Origin: Actinobacteria bacterium IMCC26256
GTDB lineage: Bacteria > Actinomycetota > Acidimicrobiia > IMCC26256
Length of the DNA: 64,000 nucleotides
Assembly: GCA_001023575.1 (NCBI GenBank)
Contig: CP011489.1
Location: 682,001-746,000, forward strand
Direction: 5' to 3'
Shown piece after piece: positions 4,149-40,700 of this stretch. Made by a program: the position numbers and the translations under genes. How positions within the stretch are numbered: position 1 is the stretch's first letter; every line of letters starts with the position of its first letter. The notes beneath the pieces were generated by a model. That model did no database searches. It was not told the DNA's origin and worked only from the letters and a program-made list of their open reading frames with translations.

Positions 4149-4167
4149 GACTAAAAGGATGAACCCC

Positions 4168-5709
4168 ATGGACAGGGTGAAGATTTTCGATACGACCCTC
4201 AGAGACGGCGAGCAGAGCCCGGGTATCTCACTGGATACTGGCGAGAAACTCGAGATCGCTGAGCAGCTCGCGCGCCTTGGTGTCGACATCATCGAGGCAG
4301 GGTTCCCAATAGCGAGTGACGGCGACTTTGAGTCTGTTGAGGCCATCGCCAAACAAGTACAGGGCCCCACGATCGCAGCTCTCTCTCGTACTGGTTTTAA
4401 AGATATCGACCGTGCATGGGAAGCAGTACGCCACGCTAAGAGCAATCGAATCCATGTGTTTATCGCAACCTCCGAGATTCACATGGCCAAGAAACTGCGC
4501 ATGACCCGTGACCAAGTAAAGGTTGAGGCAGCAGCCGGCATTGCACGTGCTGCGAGCTACACCGGCGACGTCGAGTTCTCTCCTGAGGATGGATTTAGGT
4601 CTGATCCAGAGTTCATGGTTGAGGTGTGTCAGATAGCTGTAGACAACGGAGCAACGACTCTGAACATTCCTGACACTGTTGGTTATGCAATGCCGGGTGA
4701 TTACGGAGCATTGATTGCCTATGTAATCGAGAATGTGAAGGGCGACTACGTCGTCTCAACGCATTGCCATGATGACCTTGGCCTCGCTGTTGCCAACTCC
4801 CTCTCGGGGGTGCTCAATGGAGCGCGCCAGGTTGAGTGTGCAATCAACGGGCTCGGTGAGCGTGCCGGTAACGCAGCACTTGAGGAGGTAGTCATGGCGA
4901 TGCGAACTCGCGATGACCACTTTGGTGGGCTCACGACGGGTATCCAGACAGCTGAGTTGGCTCGTACATCGCGCCTTGTATCTCGTCTTACGGGCTATCC
5001 AGTGCAGTACAACAAGGCAGTTGTGGGGCGCAATGCGTTCGCGCATGAGAGCGGCATTCATCAGCACGGAGTTCTCGAGGACCGCAATACATACGAGATT
5101 ATTGATGCACGAGAAGTTGGCCAGGAGGCCGCACAAATTGTGCTCGGTAAGCACTCTGGTCGCCACGCTTTCGCTGAGACACTCTCGACTATGGGTCTGC
5201 GGATCCAAGGCGATGCGCTTAATCAAGCCTTTACGCGATTCAAAGAACTTGCAGACCGTAAGGTGCAGATTACTGATGCGGACCTTGAGGCAATTGTGGC
5301 AGAGGAGCTCGGTACCAGTGAGGTGCACAGATTCACGATGGTGAGCCTTGATGTGCGCGGCGGCACAATCTCCACCCCAACAGCAGATGTGGTGCTGCGC
5401 GATGGAGACACAAACGTTGAGGCGACCGGTACCGGTAACGGAATGATTGACGCTGCAGTAGATGCGATTGCAACTGCTACTGGCTACGTCGGGAAGGTGC
5501 TCGACTTCAATGTTTCCTCAGTTACCTCTGGTGGTGACGCACTCGGTGATGTCGTGATCCAACTCGAGGTAGGCGGAACCAAAGCCTCAGGGCGAGGTGT
5601 AGCTACCGATGTGGTCGAGGCCTCAGCACGCGCCTATCTGAATGCTGTTAACCGAATTGTGAGGATCCAGAGCCGAGGCCAGGAGCGCGAGCACGACATC
5701 GGTCCTTGA
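4168..5709 (+). CDS. leuA: 2-isopropylmalate synthase
   Basis: First committed enzyme of leucine synthesis: condenses acetyl-CoA with 2-ketoisovalerate. It is the roughly 510-residue bacterial type I LeuA. The N-terminal TIM barrel has the signature DTTLRDGEQSPG and the metal-binding HCHDD segment. A linker follows (KHSGRHAF at about residue 330), then the C-terminal regulatory domain (about 385-513) that binds leucine in the family. An earlier in-frame ATG exists at 4159, but AAGGA (4155-4159) is 8 bases before ATG 4168 and overlaps the earlier codon, so 4168 is preferred. Expression is probably controlled by the leucine leader at 3972-4086. Compare cimA at 19641, a different subfamily. Confidence 0.95.
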   Translation: MDRVKIFDTTLRDGEQSPGISLDTGEKLEIAEQLARLGVDIIEAGFPIASDGDFESVEAIAKQVQGPTIAALSRTGFKDIDRAWEAVRHAKSNRIHVFIATSEIHMAKKLRMTRDQVKVEAAAGIARAASYTGDVEFSPEDGFRSDPEFMVEVCQIAVDNGATTLNIPDTVGYAMPGDYGALIAYVIENVKGDYVVSTHCHDDLGLAVANSLSGVLNGARQVECAINGLGERAGNAALEEVVMAMRTRDDHFGGLTTGIQTAELARTSRLVSRLTGYPVQYNKAVVGRNAFAHESGIHQHGVLEDRNTYEIIDAREVGQEAAQIVLGKHSGRHAFAETLSTMGLRIQGDALNQAFTRFKELADRKVQITDADLEAIVAEELGTSEVHRFTMVSLDVRGGTISTPTADVVLRDGDTNVEATGTGNGMIDAAVDAIATATGYVGKVLDFNVSSVTSGGDALGDVVIQLEVGGTKASGRGVATDVVEASARAYLNAVNRIVRIQSRGQEREHDIGP

Positions 5710-5765
5710 GGCTCGGAATCTCGGGTTTAATTGAGTGCTAGATAAATAATAGAGACGCAGGACAA

Positions 5766-5933
5766 ATGCCGCTAACAGGCATCATGAACCCGTTGACGGG
5801 TCGGGATTCTCGGGGCCTAAATCAGGGAAAAAAAAATAGGTATTAGGGCTCAAGTTTCTCTGGGCCCGGGCCGATATCTCTCGCACAAGCAACGCCAAAC
5901 CCTTCCGGGGTGGGTACAGGGGCCTAAATCAGG
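5766..5933 (+). ncRNA. Tandem structured RNA-like motif of unknown type
   Basis: Two units share a layout. Unit A: hairpin ATGCC/GGCAT (5766-5782), hairpin ACCCG-TTGA-CGGGT (5788-5801), then the core GGGGCCTAAATCAGG (5812-5826) and a run of A. Unit B: hairpin ACCCT-TCC-GGGGT (5899-5911), then the same 15-base core (5919-5933), in which GGCCT-AAATC-AGGCC forms a perfect hairpin. The cores are 107 bases apart and identical. The units lie in the roughly 300-base gap after leuA, upstream of a 45-codon gene with a good ribosome binding site. Tandem aptamer-like units before a short gene suggest cis-regulation. I do not match it to a known riboswitch class, and strand is assumed from the downstream gene. 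Confidence 0.45.
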
Positions 5934-6008
5934 CCAGAAGAACTGTACTCAATCCCTTGAAGATTCCGGCAGCAAATAGCGAAAGACACGAGCCAAATGG
6001 AGAATCAA

Positions 6009-6146
6009 ATGAGTTACCACGAGTTCCTTGCTTACCTTTACGACCACGAGACATCACGTGACCTTGCCGTTGGAATTGCCCAGGCAGTTGCAGAGGCTCC
6101 GCACCCAGAGTCGAACGACAAGCGTCAAGTATCCCTAGCGGTATAG
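6009..6146 (+). CDS. Small 45-residue acidic protein of unknown function
   Basis: Starts MSYHEFLAYLYDHE and continues with an alanine-rich, probably helical segment (LAVGIAQAVAEA) and a polar tail ending QVSLAV. No family is recognised. Support for translation: GGAG at 5999-6002, six bases before the ATG, and a stop that falls 13 bases before the end of convergent leuD, filling the gap neatly. An in-frame ATG at 5997 would overlap that ribosome binding site. It is the only gene downstream of the tandem structured motif, so the two probably belong to one transcript. Confidence 0.6.
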   Translation: MSYHEFLAYLYDHETSRDLAVGIAQAVAEAPHPESNDKRQVSLAV

Positions 6147-6159
6147 CCCTTTCTTAGGG

Positions 6160-6756
6160 CTACGCCCCAACTCGCGGTAAGTGAGTTGGGCGCGTTGCCT
6201 CAAAGGCTGTGATCTCATCGGCAAACTTCTCAGTTATACCGATGTCATCTAGGCCATGAACCAGGCGATGAATGTGGTGGTCGTCAAGATGGAACGGCTC
6301 CTCCATATCGAGTGACGGCACGCGAAGGATTAAATCCGGTACGTCGATGATTATCTCGATGGTTGGGTCCGCCTCAACCGCACGCATGATGCGATCGACC
6401 TCCTCGGGCCCGAGTGTCACCGGTACGAGCCCGATCTTTAAGCAATTGTTCCGGAATATATCGGCGAAGCGAGAAGAGATGATCGCCTTGAAGCCGTAGT
6501 CCTCGAGTGCCCATGGTGCGTGCTCGCGAGACGATCCGGTTCCAAAGTTTGGGCCTGCTACAAGAATCCCAGCCCCCTGGTATTGAGGTTGGTTGAGAAC
6601 AAACTCGGGGTCTTCGCGCCACTCTGAGAAGAGCCCGGCTCCGAACCCTGTGCGCTCAATGCGCTTTAGCCAATCACTTGGAATGATCTGATCGGTATCT
6701 ACATCCGATCGGTCGAGCGGCACTGCGCGCTCTGTGATGAGTTTTACTGGCTCCAT
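6160..6756 (-). CDS. leuD: 3-isopropylmalate dehydratase small subunit
   Basis: 198 residues, the usual LeuD length. Together with LeuC it isomerises 2-isopropylmalate to 3-isopropylmalate. Visible family motifs are DRSDVDTDQIIPSDWLK near the N-terminus, the swivel-domain loop GPNFGTGSSREHAPWAL (about residues 68-84), and ISSRFADIFRNNCLKIGL. It lies 21 bases downstream of leuC on the same strand and is the second gene of a leuCD operon. It ends convergent with the 45-codon gene. Confidence 0.95.
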   Translation of the reverse strand: MEPVKLITERAVPLDRSDVDTDQIIPSDWLKRIERTGFGAGLFSEWREDPEFVLNQPQYQGAGILVAGPNFGTGSSREHAPWALEDYGFKAIISSRFADIFRNNCLKIGLVPVTLGPEEVDRIMRAVEADPTIEIIIDVPDLILRVPSLDMEEPFHLDDHHIHRLVHGLDDIGITEKFADEITAFEATRPTHLPRVGA

Positions 6757-9185: not shown

Positions 9186-10433
9186 TTGAGCACTTCGAGT
9201 TTTGAGTCCAGTGGTGAGAAGAAGTCAGCAGAAAGGGCTTCGTCTCGGCGAACCAAGAGATGGATTGGAGTTGCAGCGGCGATAATTGTTGTCGCGGGTG
9301 GCGCAGTTGCGATAGCGGTAACGCAGGGCAGTGACTCGCAGCGCTCCGGCACAGTCATTAGCGGCTCAACGAGCGCCGCTGCTTCTATGAAGATCGCCAT
9401 TGGTGGTTCAACTTCGTGTCTTGTTCACTACTCCGACGTTCAGTGCTGGGGAGATAATTCTCAAGGGCAAGCCGGGAACAACACTCTTACGACTCCGGCT
9501 GCGATTGGAAAGGTCAAAACCTCCGGTAGCACTTTTTTTGGCGGGAATTCTGTATCAGCAGGTTTGGCTCATGGGTGCGGCTTCTATGGTACAAACGCCG
9601 TCTTTTGCTGGGGGAGTAATGACAATGGACAAATTGGCTCTGGTAATAGCTATCCCGAATATTCACTCGCTAACCCAGTAACGAAATCAACTGGCGGGTT
9701 GTTAACGAATTTAGTCGCAGTATCCGCTGGGGATGACGGTACCTGTGCCGTGACAGCAGCGAAGGAAGTTTGGTGCTGGGGGGGTGGTGATAATGTCGCA
9801 CGACTTAATTCCGCTGCCGGAAATCCTGTCACGGCTCTGAGCTATGGCGGCGTGGGGAACGTTTGCATGGTAACTGCTCCGTCAGGGCAGACCCCTTACG
9901 TTTTCTGCACCGGAGGTAATCCGAGTGGGATCCCGGAGCCAAGGGCGATATCAGTTGGCGGAGATCACGCGTGTGTAGTGCTCGCGGCAGATGGGGCTGT
10001 CAAATGCTGGGGAGACAACACCTACGGTCAGTTAGGCAATGGAACTACTACTGCGTCTCCAGGCTCGCTTCAGAGTACCGGTATTACTAACGCAATTGAT
10101 GTAGTCGCAGGCCTCAAGCACACCTGCGCTCTCATTGCTGGCAGCACAGCGGCGGCCAACACAGTCAAGTGCTGGGGAGACTACTCAGCAGCACAGACAG
10201 GCCAGACGCCAGGAGGCATCTCTAAACAGACCACCCCGATAGAGGTCCCCGGGCTCCTTGGGGCGACTGCGATTAGTACCTCGAGCGGCAGCTTGCACAC
10301 CTGTGCAAGCGGAGGCGGAGGTGGTGCAGGAGTTCCATGGGTGAAGTGCTGGGGCCTCAACACGAGTGCTCAAGTCTCATCGCCGGCCTCAGCATTTATA
10401 ACAACGCCAGTAAAAATAACTCCGGTTGCCTAG
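9186..10433 (+). CDS. Membrane-anchored 7-blade RCC1-repeat protein (copy 1)
   Basis: 415 residues, TTG start with GGGAG 8 bases upstream. The N-terminus is a short charged cytoplasmic stretch (about 1-25), one transmembrane helix (WIGVAAAIIVVAGGAVAIAV, about 27-46), then an extracytoplasmic region. Seven RCC1-like repeats can be counted, each with a pattern like G..H.CA....G.V.CWG.N..GQ.G; repeats 3 and 4 are degenerate. Seven is the number needed for one closed beta-propeller. Each blade keeps a Cys in the H.C position and one in CWG, suggesting a disulfide per blade. Function is unknown; surface binding is the usual guess. It is followed 101 bases later by a paralogue. Confidence 0.85.
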   Translation: MSTSSFESSGEKKSAERASSRRTKRWIGVAAAIIVVAGGAVAIAVTQGSDSQRSGTVISGSTSAAASMKIAIGGSTSCLVHYSDVQCWGDNSQGQAGNNTLTTPAAIGKVKTSGSTFFGGNSVSAGLAHGCGFYGTNAVFCWGSNDNGQIGSGNSYPEYSLANPVTKSTGGLLTNLVAVSAGDDGTCAVTAAKEVWCWGGGDNVARLNSAAGNPVTALSYGGVGNVCMVTAPSGQTPYVFCTGGNPSGIPEPRAISVGGDHACVVLAADGAVKCWGDNTYGQLGNGTTTASPGSLQSTGITNAIDVVAGLKHTCALIAGSTAAANTVKCWGDYSAAQTGQTPGGISKQTTPIEVPGLLGATAISTSSGSLHTCASGGGGGAGVPWVKCWGLNTSAQVSSPASAFITTPVKITPVA

Positions 10434-10534
10434 CCCGAGTTCCTAACACCTGAGGCGCATTTGATTTCGAGTACTAGCAGTCGTAACTACGTGATCACTT
10501 CAGGTAGTCGAATTTATAGATAGGGAGTTAAACG

Positions 10535-11854
10535 TTGAGCACTTCGAGTTTTGAGTCCAGTGGTGAGAAGAAGCCAGCAGAAAGGGCTTCGTCTCGGCGA
10601 GCCAAGAGATGGATTGCAGTTGCAGCGGCGGTAGTTGTTGTCGCAGGTGGTGCAACGGCGATCGCCGCATCGCAGGGTGGAGACTCGCAGCGCTCCGGCA
10701 CAGTCATTAGTGACACAATAGGTAATGCAGTCGCAACGAAGATCGGCGCTGGCGGAGGTTTCTCGTGCGCGGTTACCTCCATTGGGAGAGCAAAATGCTG
10801 GGGCGCCAATTCCTATGGACAAGTCGGTAATGCAACGACGAGTATCAATGGGACCTCGGGTTCGAATACCACCTCGGCATCTGAAGTTCTCTGGGGCAAC
10901 GCCCCCTACGGACCGCTTCAACCTGTAACAGCTATTGCAGCCGGCCAGAATCATGCCTGCGCAATTGCTGGGACGGGGGGCTTCGTCCTCTGCTGGGGTT
11001 CCAACAGCAATGGACAGTTGGGAAACCGCTCGACAACGAACAGTTCAATCGCGGTCGATGTGATAGATACCGCGAACTACCGCTTGAGCGGGGTCGTAGG
11101 AATAACGGCTGGGAACGCACAGACATGTGCATTAGATCGGCAAGGGTATGTTTACTGCTGGGGCTCTGGGGTGGCTCTTAATTACTCCACAAACCAGACT
11201 GCTGCGATCAGGCTCTTGGCTGTCGGCAGCACGACGGCCCCGTTTAAGGCGAAAGCCGTTAGCGCCGGAGGCACTGCCACGTGTTTAATCGCGGGCGCGC
11301 TAGAAGATACCTCCGGGACCGTCATGTGTCTTGGAAGTGGAGGGGCATCTTTACCCGGCACCCTCCAAGCGAAGGCAATCTCTGTTGGAGGAGAGCACGG
11401 TTGCGCCGTTCTCCCGGATGGCTCAGTGAGGTGCTGGGGGAGTAATACCTACGGACAGCTCGGTAACGGAACGAAGGTTGCCTCCGTAGGAGCCGCAGTC
11501 GTGGCCTCTGGGATTACCAATGCTGTTGATGTAGCCGCTGGGATGAACCACACCTGTGCGCTCCTCAGTGATCAAACAATTAAGTGCTGGGGAAATTATT
11601 CCTCAGGGCAGACTGGTCAGACCCCTGGTGAAAATCAGTACGGGCAGCTGATTGGCTCTCAGACTACGCCGACCCCATTAGCTGGTATCACCGCTGTGAC
11701 TGCTATCTCCTCCTCAAGCAGCAGCCTTCATACCTGCGCTATAGGGAGTGTGGCGAATGTTGTTGGGATGAAGTGCTGGGGCGGTAATGCCAATTACCAG
11801 ATCTACTGGTCAGCGACTCCGTATTACACAACCCCAAACTCGGTGCTCTACTGA
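10535..11854 (+). CDS. Membrane-anchored 7-blade RCC1-repeat protein (copy 2)
   Basis: 439 residues, paralogue of the preceding gene with the same TTG start, the same GGGAG ribosome binding site and a nearly identical first 60 codons (cytoplasmic stretch and TM helix). The propeller part is clearly diverged but again has seven blades, of which blade 4 has CLG instead of CWG. Blades 5 to 7 align best between the copies (TYGQLGNGT, GQTGQTPG). Tandem duplication is evident. A short inverted repeat AGACC-TCG-GGTCT at 11858-11870 follows the stop, between this gene and convergent greA. Confidence 0.85.
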   Translation: MSTSSFESSGEKKPAERASSRRAKRWIAVAAAVVVVAGGATAIAASQGGDSQRSGTVISDTIGNAVATKIGAGGGFSCAVTSIGRAKCWGANSYGQVGNATTSINGTSGSNTTSASEVLWGNAPYGPLQPVTAIAAGQNHACAIAGTGGFVLCWGSNSNGQLGNRSTTNSSIAVDVIDTANYRLSGVVGITAGNAQTCALDRQGYVYCWGSGVALNYSTNQTAAIRLLAVGSTTAPFKAKAVSAGGTATCLIAGALEDTSGTVMCLGSGGASLPGTLQAKAISVGGEHGCAVLPDGSVRCWGSNTYGQLGNGTKVASVGAAVVASGITNAVDVAAGMNHTCALLSDQTIKCWGNYSSGQTGQTPGENQYGQLIGSQTTPTPLAGITAVTAISSSSSSLHTCAIGSVANVVGMKCWGGNANYQIYWSATPYYTTPNSVLY

Positions 11855-26018: not shown

Positions 26019-26471
26019 ATGCCTCCGGCAAAGAAGACCACTCGCAAGGCAGCAGCAAAGAAGGCCCCAGCAAAGCGGAAGGCCGCTAAGAAGGCCCCCG
26101 CGAAGCGCAAGGCAGCAGCAAAGAAGGCCCCAGCAAAGCGTAAAGCCGCTAAGAAGGCTCCCGCGAAGCGCAAGGCAGCAGCAAAGAAGGCCCCAGCAAA
26201 GCGTAAAGCCGCTAAGAAGGCTCCCGCGAAGCGCAAGGCTGCTAAGAAGGCTGCAAAGAAGGCCCCAGCAAAGCGTAAAGCCGCTAAGAAGGCTCCCGCG
26301 AAGCGCAAGGCTGCTAAGAAGGCCCCTGCAAAGCGTAAAGCTGCGAAGAAGGCCGCTAAGAAGGCTCCTGCTAAGCGCAAAGCCGCTAAGAAGGCTCCTG
26401 CAAAGCGCAAAGCCGCCAAGAAGGCTCCTGCAAAGCGTAAAGCTGCCAAGAAGGCAACTCGACGTAAGTAG
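26019..26471 (+). CDS. Lys/Ala/Pro-rich histone-like protein
   Basis: 150 residues built almost entirely of near-repeats of APAKRKAAKK (10 residues) with an 11-residue variant APAKRKAAAKK and short AAKK insertions. It resembles the basic tail of mycobacterial HupB or eukaryotic H1 tails and should bind DNA through charge, probably disordered. The start is ATG 26019, with AAAGG 8 bases upstream; an in-frame GTG at 26010 overlaps that site. Placement right after HU suggests the two act together and may be cotranscribed. A strong terminator follows at 26493. Confidence 0.85.
   Translation: MPPAKKTTRKAAAKKAPAKRKAAKKAPAKRKAAAKKAPAKRKAAKKAPAKRKAAAKKAPAKRKAAKKAPAKRKAAKKAAKKAPAKRKAAKKAPAKRKAAKKAPAKRKAAKKAAKKAPAKRKAAKKAPAKRKAAKKAPAKRKAAKKATRRK
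26045..26450 (+). repeat. In-frame 30/33-base tandem repeats inside the histone-like gene
   Basis: The unit AAGGCNCCNGCNAAGCGNAA with its flanks recurs about a dozen times, with some copies identical over more than 60 bases (for example the stretches from about 26107 and 26173). Units are multiples of three, so changes in copy number keep the reading frame. Confidence 0.85.
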
Positions 26472-28739: not shown

Positions 28740-29788
28740 AGGTTGCAGTAATTGGTGCGGGCTCATGGGGGACTGCTGTAGCCGCTCTTGCTGCACAGAA
28801 TGTAGAGACGACACTCTGGGCGCGTAGCGAAGAGCTCAGCGCAGCGATGACTCGAGACTCTCGGAATAATTCCTACTTGCCGGGGATTGATCTCCCAGAG
28901 ATGACTTATACCGCTGACCTCGAAGAGGCCTGCAATGCTGCAGATATTGTTGCAATCGGCGTTCCTTCGCATGGATTTAGGGCGGTACTTGAGTCCGCCG
29001 CCAGGTCAATTGATAGTGGGGCCACAGTCATCAGTCTCGTTAAGGGTGTGGAGCAGGGGACGCTGCTGCGGATGACACAGATTGCGCATGAGGTGCTATC
29101 TACCAGCGACCACAGTCATGATCACAGGCACGACCGCAGTCATGACCGCAGTCATGACCTGACTGCAATTGGAGTATTGACCGGCCCGAACTTGGCACGC
29201 GAGGTTGCAGAGGGTCAGCCGGCGGCCTCTGTTGTGGCGATCCCTGATGGCGGGCGAGCGGAGCAAGTGCAGGCTGCATTTATGAGCCCGACATTTAGGG
29301 TCTATACAAATCCAGATGTCGTGGGGTGCGAGATTGCGGGTGCGCTAAAGAATGTGATGGCCATAGCCGCTGGAGTTGCGCATGGGCTCGGGTATGGAGA
29401 CAACACAATCGCCGCGCTGATTACACGAGGCCTCGCGGAGTTGGCGCGCCTCGGGATAGCTCTAGGTGGGAGTCCACTTACCTTCTCGGGGCTTGCAGGT
29501 ATGGGTGATCTTGTGGCGACATGCATTAGCGACAAGAGCCGTAATCGCACGGTGGGTGTTGAGCTGGGTCGCGGCCGTAGCCTTGAGGATGTGGTCAACG
29601 AGATGCATATGGTTGCTGAGGGAGTGAAGACAACGCGCGCGGTGCTTGATCTCGCCGCTCTTCACTCTCTTGAGATGCCTATCGCCGAGCAGGTTGGTGC
29701 CGTTCTGTATGACGGTAGGCGCCCAGACGAGATAGTGCCCACACTGATGATGCGCGGAGCTACCTCCGAGATGCATGGTCTTGGGTGA
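28736..29788 (+). CDS. gpsA: Glycerol-3-phosphate dehydrogenase [NAD(P)+]
   Basis: 350 residues. Makes sn-glycerol 3-phosphate from dihydroxyacetone phosphate for phospholipids. NAD(P) motif VIGAGSWGTAVA at the N-terminus, then SLVKGVEQGTLLRM and TGPNLAREVAEGQPAA; the catalytic Lys is in GALKNVMAIAAG and the substrate loop is LAGMGDLVATC. Odd feature: residues about 122-142 hold an inserted stretch of His, Asp, Arg and Ser (SDHSHDHRHDRSHDRSHDL) between the usual HEVL and IGVLTGPN, encoded by short DNA repeats. It starts inside plsC (4-base overlap) and ends within a 15-base repeat tract. Confidence 0.93.
   Translation: MKVAVIGAGSWGTAVAALAAQNVETTLWARSEELSAAMTRDSRNNSYLPGIDLPEMTYTADLEEACNAADIVAIGVPSHGFRAVLESAARSIDSGATVISLVKGVEQGTLLRMTQIAHEVLSTSDHSHDHRHDRSHDRSHDLTAIGVLTGPNLAREVAEGQPAASVVAIPDGGRAEQVQAAFMSPTFRVYTNPDVVGCEIAGALKNVMAIAAGVAHGLGYGDNTIAALITRGLAELARLGIALGGSPLTFSGLAGMGDLVATCISDKSRNRTVGVELGRGRSLEDVVNEMHMVAEGVKTTRAVLDLAALHSLEMPIAEQVGAVLYDGRRPDEIVPTLMMRGATSEMHGLG
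29110..29160 (+). repeat. Short CATGAC-type repeats encoding a His/Asp insertion in GpsA
   Basis: The unit GACCGCAGTCAT and its variants recur about four times in frame, giving the SHDHRHDRSHDRSHD stretch. The surrounding gene shows no such repetition. Confidence 0.75.
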
Positions 29789-31118
29789 GCGGGTCTTGGG
29801 TGAGCGGGTCTTGGGTGAGCGGGTCTTGGGTGAGCGGGTCTTGGTGAGTAAGCAGACCGAGAATATTGAGGAATCTCGCCGAACCCTTGTAGGGACTGTT
29901 GGCTCCTCGGCTCGAGCTGAGGTAGATGAACGCGGAGCGATTTCTCCAATTGATAATGCGTGGAGCCTTGGTTGGTGGATCGGTGGCGACGACCGCTGGC
30001 ACGTACCCGCCCGCGAATCCTCTGTCCGCCAGAGTGCGGTTGAGTCAGCGCCGGTTCTCGAGACATTGGTGCATGTCCCCAATGGCAACATCATTCAGCG
30101 CGTCTATGGAGTCTCTGGCCCCGCTGGATTGATCGTGGTCGATATTCAGAACCGTTCGCCAGGCGCTGCAGTAATTGCTTTCACCATAAACGGGAGTGGT
30201 GCACGGCCGGTGCGTTCAGTCTCTCTTGATGGAGACACTTTCGTGATTAACGGGACCCCCGCATTGGTCCTTCCGTTTGCCCCATCCCGCTGGTTTGTCT
30301 CGAAGGCGGGGGAGCAGCCAGCGATAGATGCGGTAGTAGAGGGGCTTGCTAAGACCGGGCCGTTTCCGAGTAGTGAAGACTCCAAGGGTCTAGAGGTAGT
30401 AATCATGTATCCCCTCGCTCACACAGCGAGGATGCGTATCGCGCTTGCTTTGGGCGACGAATGGCCCGATGCGGTAGCGCTAGCGGACTTGCCCAGCGCA
30501 GACGACGCTGCTCGAGGTTGGCTTGCGCTACTCGACCGCGCTACACGTGTAGTGCTCCCGGACCAACGCCTAATGGATCGCGTGATGCTCTCGCGTTCTC
30601 AAGTTCTATTGAATGCAGACGGCGGCCCTGTTGAGGTAGCGGCCCTTGAGGACTGGGGTTTTGATTCCGAGGCTGAGTACGCGTGGCACGGATTAAAACT
30701 TAGGGATAGACGCAAGGCTCGCCGACGACCTGCAGGTGCAGGGGTTGTCGCAAACATCGAGACTCCGGATGGAGCGCTCTTGGTTGTGCCGTCATGGCCG
30801 AGTGCGCCTTCAGAGTTCTTGGTTGCACTGCGCCAAGGTCTTGTATGCGATACCGATGACGGAGTAGCGCTATTAAGTGTCTTCCCCTCTGAGTGGTATG
30901 GGCAACCCGTTGAGGTACACGCAGCCCCAACCCGTCACGGTCTTGTCTCTTTTGCACTGCGTTGGCACGGCTCGCGCCCTGCTCTGCTTTGGGAGGTGAC
31001 CGATGCGGCGGAGGGATTGGTTGTAACCGCACCTGGTCTTGACTCGCAGTGGTCAAGTAGAGAATTAAGTGGTGATGCTCTGCTCTCGGAGCCGGTTAAT
31101 CCGCCAATCTCACAGTAA
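29775..31118 (+). CDS. Unknown 447-residue protein downstream of gpsA
   Basis: No family recognised. From ATG 29775 the first 23 residues are repeats of VLGER encoded by the 15-base tract; GTG 29844 (start VSKQTENIEE) avoids this and may be the true start, giving 424 residues. The first half is beta-rich and reads like a sandwich domain (WSLGWWIGGDDRWHVPARES, VLETLVHVPNGNIIQRVYGV, GLIVVDIQNRSPGAAVIAFTI). A helical segment follows (AARGWLALLDRATRV, LMDRVMLSRSQVLL), and then a second strand-rich part. No signal peptide or membrane helix. The last 23 bases overlap the convergent alpha-mannosidase, whose sugar-related role hints at, but does not prove, a carbohydrate link. Confidence 0.75.
   Translation: MVLGERVLGERVLGERVLGERVLVSKQTENIEESRRTLVGTVGSSARAEVDERGAISPIDNAWSLGWWIGGDDRWHVPARESSVRQSAVESAPVLETLVHVPNGNIIQRVYGVSGPAGLIVVDIQNRSPGAAVIAFTINGSGARPVRSVSLDGDTFVINGTPALVLPFAPSRWFVSKAGEQPAIDAVVEGLAKTGPFPSSEDSKGLEVVIMYPLAHTARMRIALALGDEWPDAVALADLPSADDAARGWLALLDRATRVVLPDQRLMDRVMLSRSQVLLNADGGPVEVAALEDWGFDSEAEYAWHGLKLRDRRKARRRPAGAGVVANIETPDGALLVVPSWPSAPSEFLVALRQGLVCDTDDGVALLSVFPSEWYGQPVEVHAAPTRHGLVSFALRWHGSRPALLWEVTDAAEGLVVTAPGLDSQWSSRELSGDALLSEPVNPPISQ
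29777..29844 (+). repeat. 15-base tandem repeat across the gpsA stop and the next gene start
   Basis: Four perfect copies of GGTCTTGGGTGAGCG (29777-29791, 29792-29806, 29807-29821, 29822-29836) plus a partial fifth. The gpsA stop TGA lies inside copy 1. In the downstream frame each copy reads VLGER. The unit is a multiple of three, so copy number can vary without shifting that frame. Confidence 0.9.
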
Positions 31119-37747: not shown

Positions 37748-40700
37748 CTAGAGACCGATAACGGTTACTGGGATGTTCGAGTTGGTTGTGGTTCCATCCC
37801 CAAGCTCGCCAGAGCCGTTGGATCCCCAACAAACAACGCTCTGGTCCTCTAGTACTGAGCACGAGTGCTGGTCACGTGCTGAGACAGTTACGCCCGTTGA
37901 GAGGCCGGAGACCCTAACAGCGATGTTTGAGTTGCTATTCATTCCATTGCCGAGTTGACCGACTGAGTCGCGACCCCAGCACCCCACTTCACCACTCGCA
38001 ACAACGGCGCATGTGTGCCGCCATGCCGTAGTCACGTCGGTAGCGGTCGAGATTCCCGCTACTGCTACCGGAGTGTTTGAGTTGCTGTTGCTCGAGTTAC
38101 CGAGTTGACCATCTGAGTTATTTCCCCAGCATTTGATAGCCCCGGTATCAAGTACCGCGCATGAGTGGCTCTCGCCGGCATCGACGGAGCTTGCATCGGT
38201 GATCCCTGTGACCGAGACCGGGGTCAGCGACTGGGTATTAGATGCATTGCCGAGTTGGCCAGCGGAGTTGGCCCCCCAGCACTTAACACTGCCGTTAGCG
38301 AGTGAAGCACAGGTGTGGTCGTCGCCCACTCCAACTGAGGTTGCGGTAGTGATGCCAGTTACAGATACTGGAGTGGCTGACGATGTTGTGTTTCCAGTGC
38401 CCAACTGCCCGGCTGCATTCTTTCCCCAGCACTTAATACCCGCGTCGGCGAGGAGCGCGCAGGTGACGCTGCCGCCGGTGTCGATTGCTATCGCAGTTGA
38501 GATGCCGCTGACCGCCACCGGAGTATTTGAGTCGTCACCAGTTCCATCACCGAGTTGACCATCTCCGTTGTATCCCCAGCACTCCACGGTGCCATCTTCG
38601 AGGAGAGCGCAGGTATGAAGGTCTCCTGCCGCGATTGCAACCGCGGTCGATATGTTGCTTACCGAGACCGGTGTCAGCGAACTTACATTTGTTCCATCAC
38701 CAAGCTGGCCATAAGTGTTGTCCCCCCAGCAGGTGACGCTGCCTGTGGCTAGTGCAGCACAGGTATGGTTCAAACCTGCTGCAACTGCGATCGGTAATGG
38801 CAGCGGAATACCAAAAACGGTGACTGGGACATTCGAGTTGGTATTGGTGGCGTCGCCGAGCTCACCGTACCCGTTGTATCCCCAGCATTTGATCTTCGCG
38901 TTAGCGAGTAGCGCACACGAAGAGAGGTCGCCTGCTGCGATGGAGGTTGCGGTTGTGATGCCTGAGACTGTGACGGGAATATTCGAGTTGGTATTTGTTG
39001 CGTTGCCGAGTTGGCCATAGAAGTTAAATCCCCAGCATTGGACGGTCTGGTTAGCGAGTAGCGCACACGTATGGCGGCCACCTGCTGCTACGGAGGTTGC
39101 GGTTGTAATGCCTGAGACCGTGACGGGAATATTCGAGTCGGTATTTGTTGCGTTACCGAGCCGACCATTTGCGTTGTATCCCCAGCATTGGACGGTCTGG
39201 TTAGCGAGTAGCGCACACGCATGGCTGCCACCGGCTGTGATAGCGGTTGCGGCTGTGATGCCTGAGACTGGGACGGGAATATTCGAGTTGGTAATTGTTG
39301 CGTTACCGAGCTGTCCGTAGAAGTTGTATCCCCAGCATTTGATCGTCGCGTCATCGAGTAGGGCGCACGTATAGTTTGCCCCCGCTGCTATGGAGGTTGC
39401 GGTTGTGATGCCCGAGACTGTGACGGGGATATTTGAGGTGGTATTTGTTGCGTTGCCGAGCTGTCCGTATTGGTTGTATCCCCAGCATTGGACTGTCTGG
39501 TCAGCGAGCAGCGCACACGTATGGCTACCACCTGCTGCGATTGCTGTAGCGGTTGTGATGCCTGAGACTGGGACGGGGATATTGGAGTCGATGTTGGTGT
39601 CGTCGCCAAGCTGTCCAAGTGCGTTGAATCCCCAGCACTCGACCGTCGCGTCATCGAGCAGCGCACAGGTGTGGTATTGCCCGGCTGTTATGGAGATAGC
39701 GGTTGTGATGCCCGAGACTGTGACGGGGATATTCGAGCTGATATTGGTGGCGTCACCAAGCTGTCCGGTTTCGTTGTTGCCCCAGCATTGGACTGTCTGG
39801 TCAGGGAGTACCGCACAGGCATGGTTCAAACCTGCTGCGAGGATGGTGTCGGTCGCTGTCGGAAGAGCACTTGGGCCTTCGTAGTAGCCGACGACATCAA
39901 CAATTACATTCGGGCAACCACCACTAGCGAAGAGTGAGATCGCTCCAGCATCACCAACTTTTACAACAGTTCCGTTGGGTACTACCTGGCCGGCAACATA
40001 GTTAAGTGTTGAGGCTGTCGGGCGTGTCGCACCTGTCGGGAAAGCAGTTAAATATCCTGGCGTGGATGGCGATACAACTGTGATGTTTAACGCGACAGCG
40101 TTCGCACCATCAGGCACAGTTGTTGTGCCGCCAGTAACAGTGAGGTTACGAAGAGCACCAACACAGGGGCCTTCGCCGGGGTTGCGAGTATCAACAAGAC
40201 GCTTCGGGGTAAGACCTACAAAGCCGCCCTCTAATACTGGAGAGCCGCCTTCGTAGTAGCCGACAACATCAACGATTACGTTCGGGCATCCGCCATTCGA
40301 GAAGAGTGTGATTGCTCCAGCGTCGCCGACTTTTACAGTCACGTTGTTTGGTACTACCTGACCTGTTGAGTAGTTCAAGTTTGAGGCTGTGGGGCGTGAT
40401 GCGCCATTGGGGTAGACAGTCACATAACCAGGGGTTGTTGGTGAGACAACAGTTACATTCAAAGCAACAGCACTCGCACCCACAGGCACGGTTGTAGTGC
40501 CGCCAGTAACAGTGAGGTTACGAGTAGTCAGAAGGCATGGGCCTTCACCTGGGTTGCGAGAATCTACAAGACGCTTTGGTGTGACACCAACAAAACCACC
40601 AGGCGCTACAGGTGTAGTGCCATCAAAATATCCAAGGACATCAACAATCACATTCGGGCAACCAGCATTAGCAAAGAGTGTGATCTGGCCCGCGTCACCG

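What the first reader, a model, noticed from the sequence alone, without database searches (positions are those of the whole stretch)
5766..5933. Two copies of an unrecognised structured motif with an identical 15-base core
GGGGCCTAAATCAGG occurs at 5812-5826 and 5919-5933, each preceded by an ACCC/GGGT hairpin at similar distance, in a 300-base gap. In copy B the core itself folds as GGCCT-AAATC-AGGCC. Tandem arrangement, conserved unpaired-looking bases and placement before a 45-codon gene recall tandem riboswitches and small-peptide leaders, but I cannot match it to glycine, glutamine, guanidine, ZTP, SAM or c-di-AMP classes.
Basis: partly seen in the sequence, partly recalled or inferred. 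Interest (0 to 1): 0.68.

Follow-up and report, generated by a model that had tools for sequence, protein, structure and literature searches.

The report
WhiG-type promoter, leader and small protein
The repeated 15-base motif is not a tandem riboswitch: only its second copy lies in a conserved, probably hairpin-forming leader, of an unnamed 45-residue protein gene whose flagellar/WhiG-type promoter box also sits in front of the organism's type IV pilus and sensor-kinase genes.

Summary
The 15-mer GGGGCCTAAATCAGG does occur at 5812-5826 and 5919-5933 and is non-random locally, but it is not a tandem structured element. Copy A is absent as such from the three same-genus genomes and lies in a 90-nt stretch that replaces a glycosyltransferase gene. 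It does not match a covariance model built on copy B. Copy B lies in a ~125-nt leader that is 92% identical between species, against 69% at fourfold sites of the adjacent leuA. All three species' leaders fold into the same long hairpin, but no compensatory pair changes were seen. No Rfam class matches, even at E<=1. Just upstream of the leader is a conserved box, TCAAGTT-N14-CCGATA (5850-5876), matching the FliA/WhiG promoter type. A similar box precedes this small gene in all 12 genomes where BLAST finds it (degenerate in four). In the window's genome, close matches also precede a type IV pilin, the pilB operon and a GAF-histidine kinase. The genome has a WhiG sigma orthologue in the classic whiG locus and no flagellin. 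Best reading: a new small-protein gene in a WhiG/type IV pilus regulon, like the one described in Rubrobacter. Whether the leader hairpin regulates anything, and what the protein does, remain unproven.

The parts
4159..5709 (+). leuA (2-isopropylmalate synthase), upstream neighbour
   Evidence: Pfam HMGL-like 4e-93 and LeuA_dimer 1e-32
5739..5828 (.). stretch specific to this genome that replaces the glycosyltransferase gene found here in G001 and G002; contains copy A
   Evidence: homology with G001/G003 starts at about 5829; leuA-GT4-small ORF order in G001 and G002; intact close orthologue absent from G000, best remaining match a 49% paralogue at another locus
5812..5826 (+). copy A of GGGGCCTAAATCAGG, upstream of the promoter box
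   Evidence: absent as such in relatives; not matched by covariance model R1
5850..5876 (+). FliA/WhiG-type promoter box TCAAGTT-N14-CCGATA (-35 TCAA 5850-5853, 16 nt, -10 GCCGATAT 5870-5877)
   Evidence: same or degenerate box upstream of the small ORF in all 12 BLAST-found homologue genomes; recurs at pilin, pilB operon and histidine kinase genes in G000; 17 hits versus 1 for the reversed control in 11 relatives
5884..6008 (+). inferred 5' leader (start site inferred from the -10 box, not mapped)
   Evidence: 92% identity G000/G001 and G000/G003 against 69% at leuA fourfold sites
5902..5962 (+). predicted long stem-loop of the leader, apical hairpin GGCCU-AAAUC-AGGCC at 5921-5935
   Evidence: same fold in G000, G001, G003; no compensatory double changes
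5919..5933 (+). copy B of the 15-mer, apex of the leader hairpin
   Evidence: G001 and G003 have GGGGCCTAAAGCAGG here
6009..6146 (+). 45-codon gene MSYHEFLAYLYDHETSRDLAVGIAQAVAEAPHPESNDKRQVSLAV, Shine-Dalgarno-like GGAG at 5999-6002
   Evidence: homologues in 12 of 58 genomes of the order by BLAST, plus one more by profile; no Pfam or NCBIfam family; AlphaFold2 two helices 3-12 and 17-29, mean pLDDT 71.5
6160..6756 (-). leuD (3-isopropylmalate dehydratase small subunit), convergent neighbour
   Evidence: Pfam Aconitase_C 9e-30

Best explanation
The region is the control region and leader of a small-protein gene that belongs to a WhiG/FliA-type sigma regulon. RNA polymerase carrying the WhiG orthologue would recognise TCAA-N16-GCCGATAT (5850-5877), start near 5884 and make a transcript with a ~125-nt leader. 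The leader folds into a long hairpin whose apex is the copy B core, followed by GGAG and the 45-codon gene. The small protein would be made together with type IV pilus components (a pilin, the DUF4388-PilB operon) and a GAF-histidine kinase that carry the same kind of box, as in the WhiG-controlled type IV pilus regulon of Rubrobacter. The hairpin most likely tunes stability or translation of this mRNA rather than sensing a metabolite. Copy A is an evolutionary by-product (a short duplication or conversion from copy B at the site where a glycosyltransferase gene was lost) and has no role of its own. Shown: the box, its recurrence, the sigma orthologue, conservation of the small protein and of the leader. 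Inferred: that WhiG uses the box, the start site, the hairpin's role, how copy A arose, and the protein's function.
For: Box: TCAA-N16-GCCGATAT has two mismatches to the flagellar consensus TAAA/GCCGATAA and lies 132 nt from the ATG, which fits the criteria used for WhiG targets in PMC8325347 (up to two mismatches, within 200 bp). Protein homologues found without reference to DNA carry the box upstream, although leader length and neighbours differ. In G000 the exact N14 pattern occurs only here and before a type IV pilin, and one-mismatch sites precede the DUF4388-pilB operon and a GAF-HisKA kinase. In 11 relatives there are 17 hits against 1 control; 12 of the 17 precede the same four gene types. 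WhiG orthologue (275 bits, cut-off 189.6) in a dprA-xerC-whiG-peptidase-rpsB-tsf locus, and no flagellin in G000. Leader 123/134 identical against leuA fourfold sites 189/273 (p 1e-7) and the small ORF's own fourfold sites 10/16, so not a recent transfer. Indels of 1 nt in the leader rule out a coding reason for its conservation. Copy A: absent from relatives, shares the T that G000's copy B has but the relatives' cores lack, no model match.
Against: No transcript data. The -35 element is TCAA rather than TAAA. A distant homologue (G040, L174) sits between leuA and leuD without a recognisable box, so the box is not universal. In G014, G041, G025 and G038 the box is degenerate. The leader hairpin has no compensatory changes, two broken pairs and only modest z-scores, and its sequence is not kept in the fourth species G002. 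The long leader is confined to this genus. The presence of RsiG in this genome was not tested.
Confidence: 0.62

Rival explanations
1. Copy B's leader is a dedicated cis-regulatory RNA (riboswitch-like or protein-binding) that senses a ligand and controls the small protein.
For: Leader much more conserved than neutral sites; same long hairpin in three species; no known Rfam class matches.
Against: Only three close sequences, no covariation, apical loop base changes T to G, pair breaks at columns 23 and 65; absent in other families, where the leader is only 33-42 nt; no match among the fetched regulon members.
Confidence: 0.17
2. One reading: a tandem structured element (two aptamers) in one leader.
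For: Two identical 15-mers in one gap, unlikely by chance.
Against: Identity stops at exactly 15 bases; copy A absent from the same-genus genomes and not found by the covariance model; copy A lies upstream of the promoter box; its region folds like shuffled sequence.
Confidence: 0.03
3. The two 15-mers are operator sites for a DNA-binding regulator flanking the promoter (one upstream of -35, one downstream of the start site).
For: The copies lie on either side of the box, 107 bp apart; a G001 stretch at copy A's place holds a loosely similar GGCCTCAAG.
Against: Copy A not conserved in G001, G002 or G003; no other occurrence in the genome, so the regulator would have a single target.
Confidence: 0.06
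4. The small gene is tied to leucine biosynthesis (between leuA and leuD) and is transcribed with leuA; the box match is incidental.
For: The leuA / small ORF / leuD neighbourhood recurs in G000, G001, G019, G040 and, with one side seen, G025, G038, G035.
Against: The gene is found away from leu genes in G014, G031, G041 and G044 but keeps the box or a degenerate form of it; box hits exceed the control 17 to 1.
Confidence: 0.12

Closest known systems
WhiG/RsiG/c-di-GMP regulon of Rubrobacter controlling type IV pili (PMC8325347)
   Same: WhiG orthologue in a non-flagellated genome, flagellar-type promoter boxes before pilin and pilB genes
   Different: Here a -35 of TCAA(GTT); boxes also before a GAF-histidine kinase and a previously unnamed 45-residue protein; RsiG not tested; no transcript data
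FliA/SigmaD/WhiG promoter class (TAAA-N-GCCGATAA)
   Same: -10 GCCGATAT and a 16-nt gap to TCAA
   Different: two mismatches in total; A-to-C in the -35
Tandem riboswitches (e.g. glycine class)
   Same: Two like-sequence units were proposed in one intergenic gap
   Different: No Rfam match, one unit only in relatives, the unit upstream of the promoter is not transcribed from it

Membership tests
WhiG/FliA regulon promoter | -35 TAAA / -10 GCCGATAA with at most two mismatches, within 200 bp of a start codon | tested here: met
   TCAA-N16-GCCGATAT, two mismatches, 132 nt from the ATG
WhiG/FliA regulon promoter | a WhiG/FliA sigma encoded in the genome | tested here: met
   TIGR02479 at 275 bits, G000:C1:815585-816259, classic whiG locus
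WhiG/FliA regulon promoter | box recurs before functionally related genes above chance | tested here: met
   pilin, pilB operon, kinase; 17 versus 1 control
WhiG/FliA regulon promoter | transcription start just downstream and dependence on the sigma | not testable with these tools
   no expression data available
Known riboswitch or RNA family (Rfam 15) | score above a family's threshold | tested here: not met
   no match in 5700-6200 even at E<=1
Tandem riboswitch | two homologous structured units in the same transcript | tested here: not met
   copy A unmatched by model R1, missing in relatives, upstream of the promoter box
Structured cis-regulatory RNA | covariation supporting the helix | tested here: inconclusive
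   three sequences, no compensatory changes, two broken pairs
Named small-protein family (Pfam/NCBIfam) | match to a curated model | tested here: not met
   no significant family for any of 10 members

The most novel reading that the evidence does not exclude
A genus-specific regulatory RNA hairpin sits in the leader of a new family of 37-45-residue helical proteins that are expressed with type IV pili and a histidine kinase by a c-di-GMP-linked WhiG switch, the small protein acting as a regulator of pili or of the kinase.
Probability: 0.15. Interest if true: 0.62.

Novelty: new member of a known kind. Interest (0 to 1): 0.42.

Why it matters
WhiG orthologues scored over the family cut-off in 53 of 58 genomes of this order, most of them without flagellin, yet what they control there is not known from the papers found. 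The boxes found here give a concrete, testable target list (type IV pili, a sensor kinase and an unnamed small-protein family) and would extend the Rubrobacter picture to another deep actinobacterial lineage. The result also shows how a striking local repeat can lead away from the feature that matters.

Tried and rejected
Rfam at gathering and at E<=1: nothing in the region. The 15-mer as a dispersed element: only two in the genome; 79 scattered hits in all sequenced species, below the several hundred expected by base count, with no taxonomic theme seen in the record titles. Copy A as the 5' end of the lost glycosyltransferase gene: alignment no better than shuffles. A reading frame in the leader: 1-nt indels between species exclude it. 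Sigma-70 promoter: none found. Leader homology in G002: weak, 24 of 1000 shuffles as good. Covariance model R1 over the window and 28 fetched loci: only copy B, next best E 0.66. Weak profile hits of the small protein outside the order: partial matches; the two read (L172, L177) are not small ORFs beginning with the motif. The first leuA fourfold comparison used a wrong frame and was redone.

Full report
Observation. A repeat this long in a gap of this composition is rare by chance. The repeat identity does not extend by a single base on either side. The ACCC/GGGT pairs lie at different distances from the core (10 and 3 nt), and in the predicted fold of copy B the GGGT pairs elsewhere.

Comparative test. 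The window belongs to a complete 2.46 Mb genome (G000). Three same-genus genomes are held. In G001 and G003 homology starts at about window 5829, after copy A; they have one core only, GGGGCCTAAAGCAGG, at copy B's place. In G001 and G002 a glycosyltransferase gene stands between leuA and the small gene, and in G003 its 3' part is seen upstream of the small gene. In G000 that gene is gone and the 90-nt stretch with copy A is in its place; its closest remaining match is a 49% identical paralogue at another locus. Copy A shares the T of G000's copy B that the relatives lack, so a late duplication or conversion is the simplest account (inference). A covariance model of the copy B hairpin does not find copy A. 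The tandem reading therefore fails.

What is conserved. The 45-codon gene is a real gene: homologues of 37-45 residues occur in 12 of 58 genomes of the order by BLAST and in one more, distant genome by profile, with the motif M-x-Y-H-x-F-L-x-Y-L-[FY]-D. No Pfam or NCBIfam model matches. AlphaFold2 suggests two helices with moderate confidence. Between G000 and G001 the leader is 92% identical, against 69% at the fourfold sites of leuA and 10/16 at those of the small gene itself. One-base indels exclude coding. The leaders of three species fold into one long hairpin with copy B at its apex, but changes are few and none is compensatory, so structure is plausible, not proven.

The promoter box. 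Reading upstream of all homologues showed a shared element, TCAAGTT-N14/15-CCGATA, in spite of different neighbours and leader lengths; it is degenerate in G014, G041, G025 and G038. It has the -10 and spacing of the FliA/SigmaD/WhiG class. In G000 the exact pattern with N14 occurs twice: here and before a type IV pilin. One-mismatch sites precede the DUF4388-pilB operon and a GAF-histidine kinase, while two further one-mismatch sites (585240 and 1668164) look like chance. In 11 relatives the pattern has 17 hits against 1 for the reversed control; five precede the small gene, five the kinase or a homologue of its N-terminal part (in f12 genomes without a Pfam kinase domain in the 265-residue ORF), one a pilin and one the pilB operon. 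The genome has a WhiG orthologue in the dprA-xerC-whiG-peptidase-rpsB-tsf locus and no flagellin. In Rubrobacter, boxes of this class and mapped start sites point to WhiG control of type IV pili (PMC8325347).

Mechanism. WhiG holoenzyme starts near 5884; the transcript carries a ~125-nt hairpin leader, then GGAG and the 45-codon gene. Co-expression with type IV pili and the kinase is inferred from the shared box. Leader function (stability or translation tuning) and protein function are inference only. Copy A lies upstream of the start site and would not be transcribed from it.

Limits. No expression data; only three usable leaders; no genome-wide scan with a matrix; RsiG not sought. One distant homologue (G040) lacks the box while keeping the leuA-leuD neighbourhood, which leaves a link with leucine genes open.

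Noticed in passing
G000:C1:1053536-1054838 (L132:9537-10839): Two nearly identical type IV pilin genes in tandem; only the second has the WhiG-type box upstream, the first has no visible box, which suggests separate control of the two copies.
   Followed up: partly
L174 (G040), position 1501: Distant homologue MNVIEFLEYLAAHDATRALAYDLADAWVASEAGLGAIRPAA between leuA and a convergent leuD in another family, without a recognisable WhiG box.
   Followed up: partly
L098, L099, L104 upstream of the small ORF: In one genus the -10 element is part of an inverted repeat (CCGATACC-N6-GGGTATTG) just upstream of the Shine-Dalgarno sequence, a possible operator or leader hairpin.
   Followed up: no
window 9186-11854: Two tandem genes for RCC1-repeat-like proteins with nearly identical N-termini (MSTSSFESSGEKK.AERASSRR.KRWI).
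   Followed up: no
window 26043-26440: Array of imperfect repeats of about 63-72 bp encoding Lys/Ala-rich sequence, as in histone H1-like or HU tails.
   Followed up: no
window 29777-29845 and 38831-39710: A 15-bp tandem array (GGTCTTGGGTGAGCG) and an array of about 150-bp repeats.
   Followed up: no
order-wide: A WhiG orthologue scores over the family cut-off in 53 of 58 genomes while flagellin is found over cut-off in 16; many flagellated ones carry a second, FliA-like sigma next to flagellin.
   Followed up: partly
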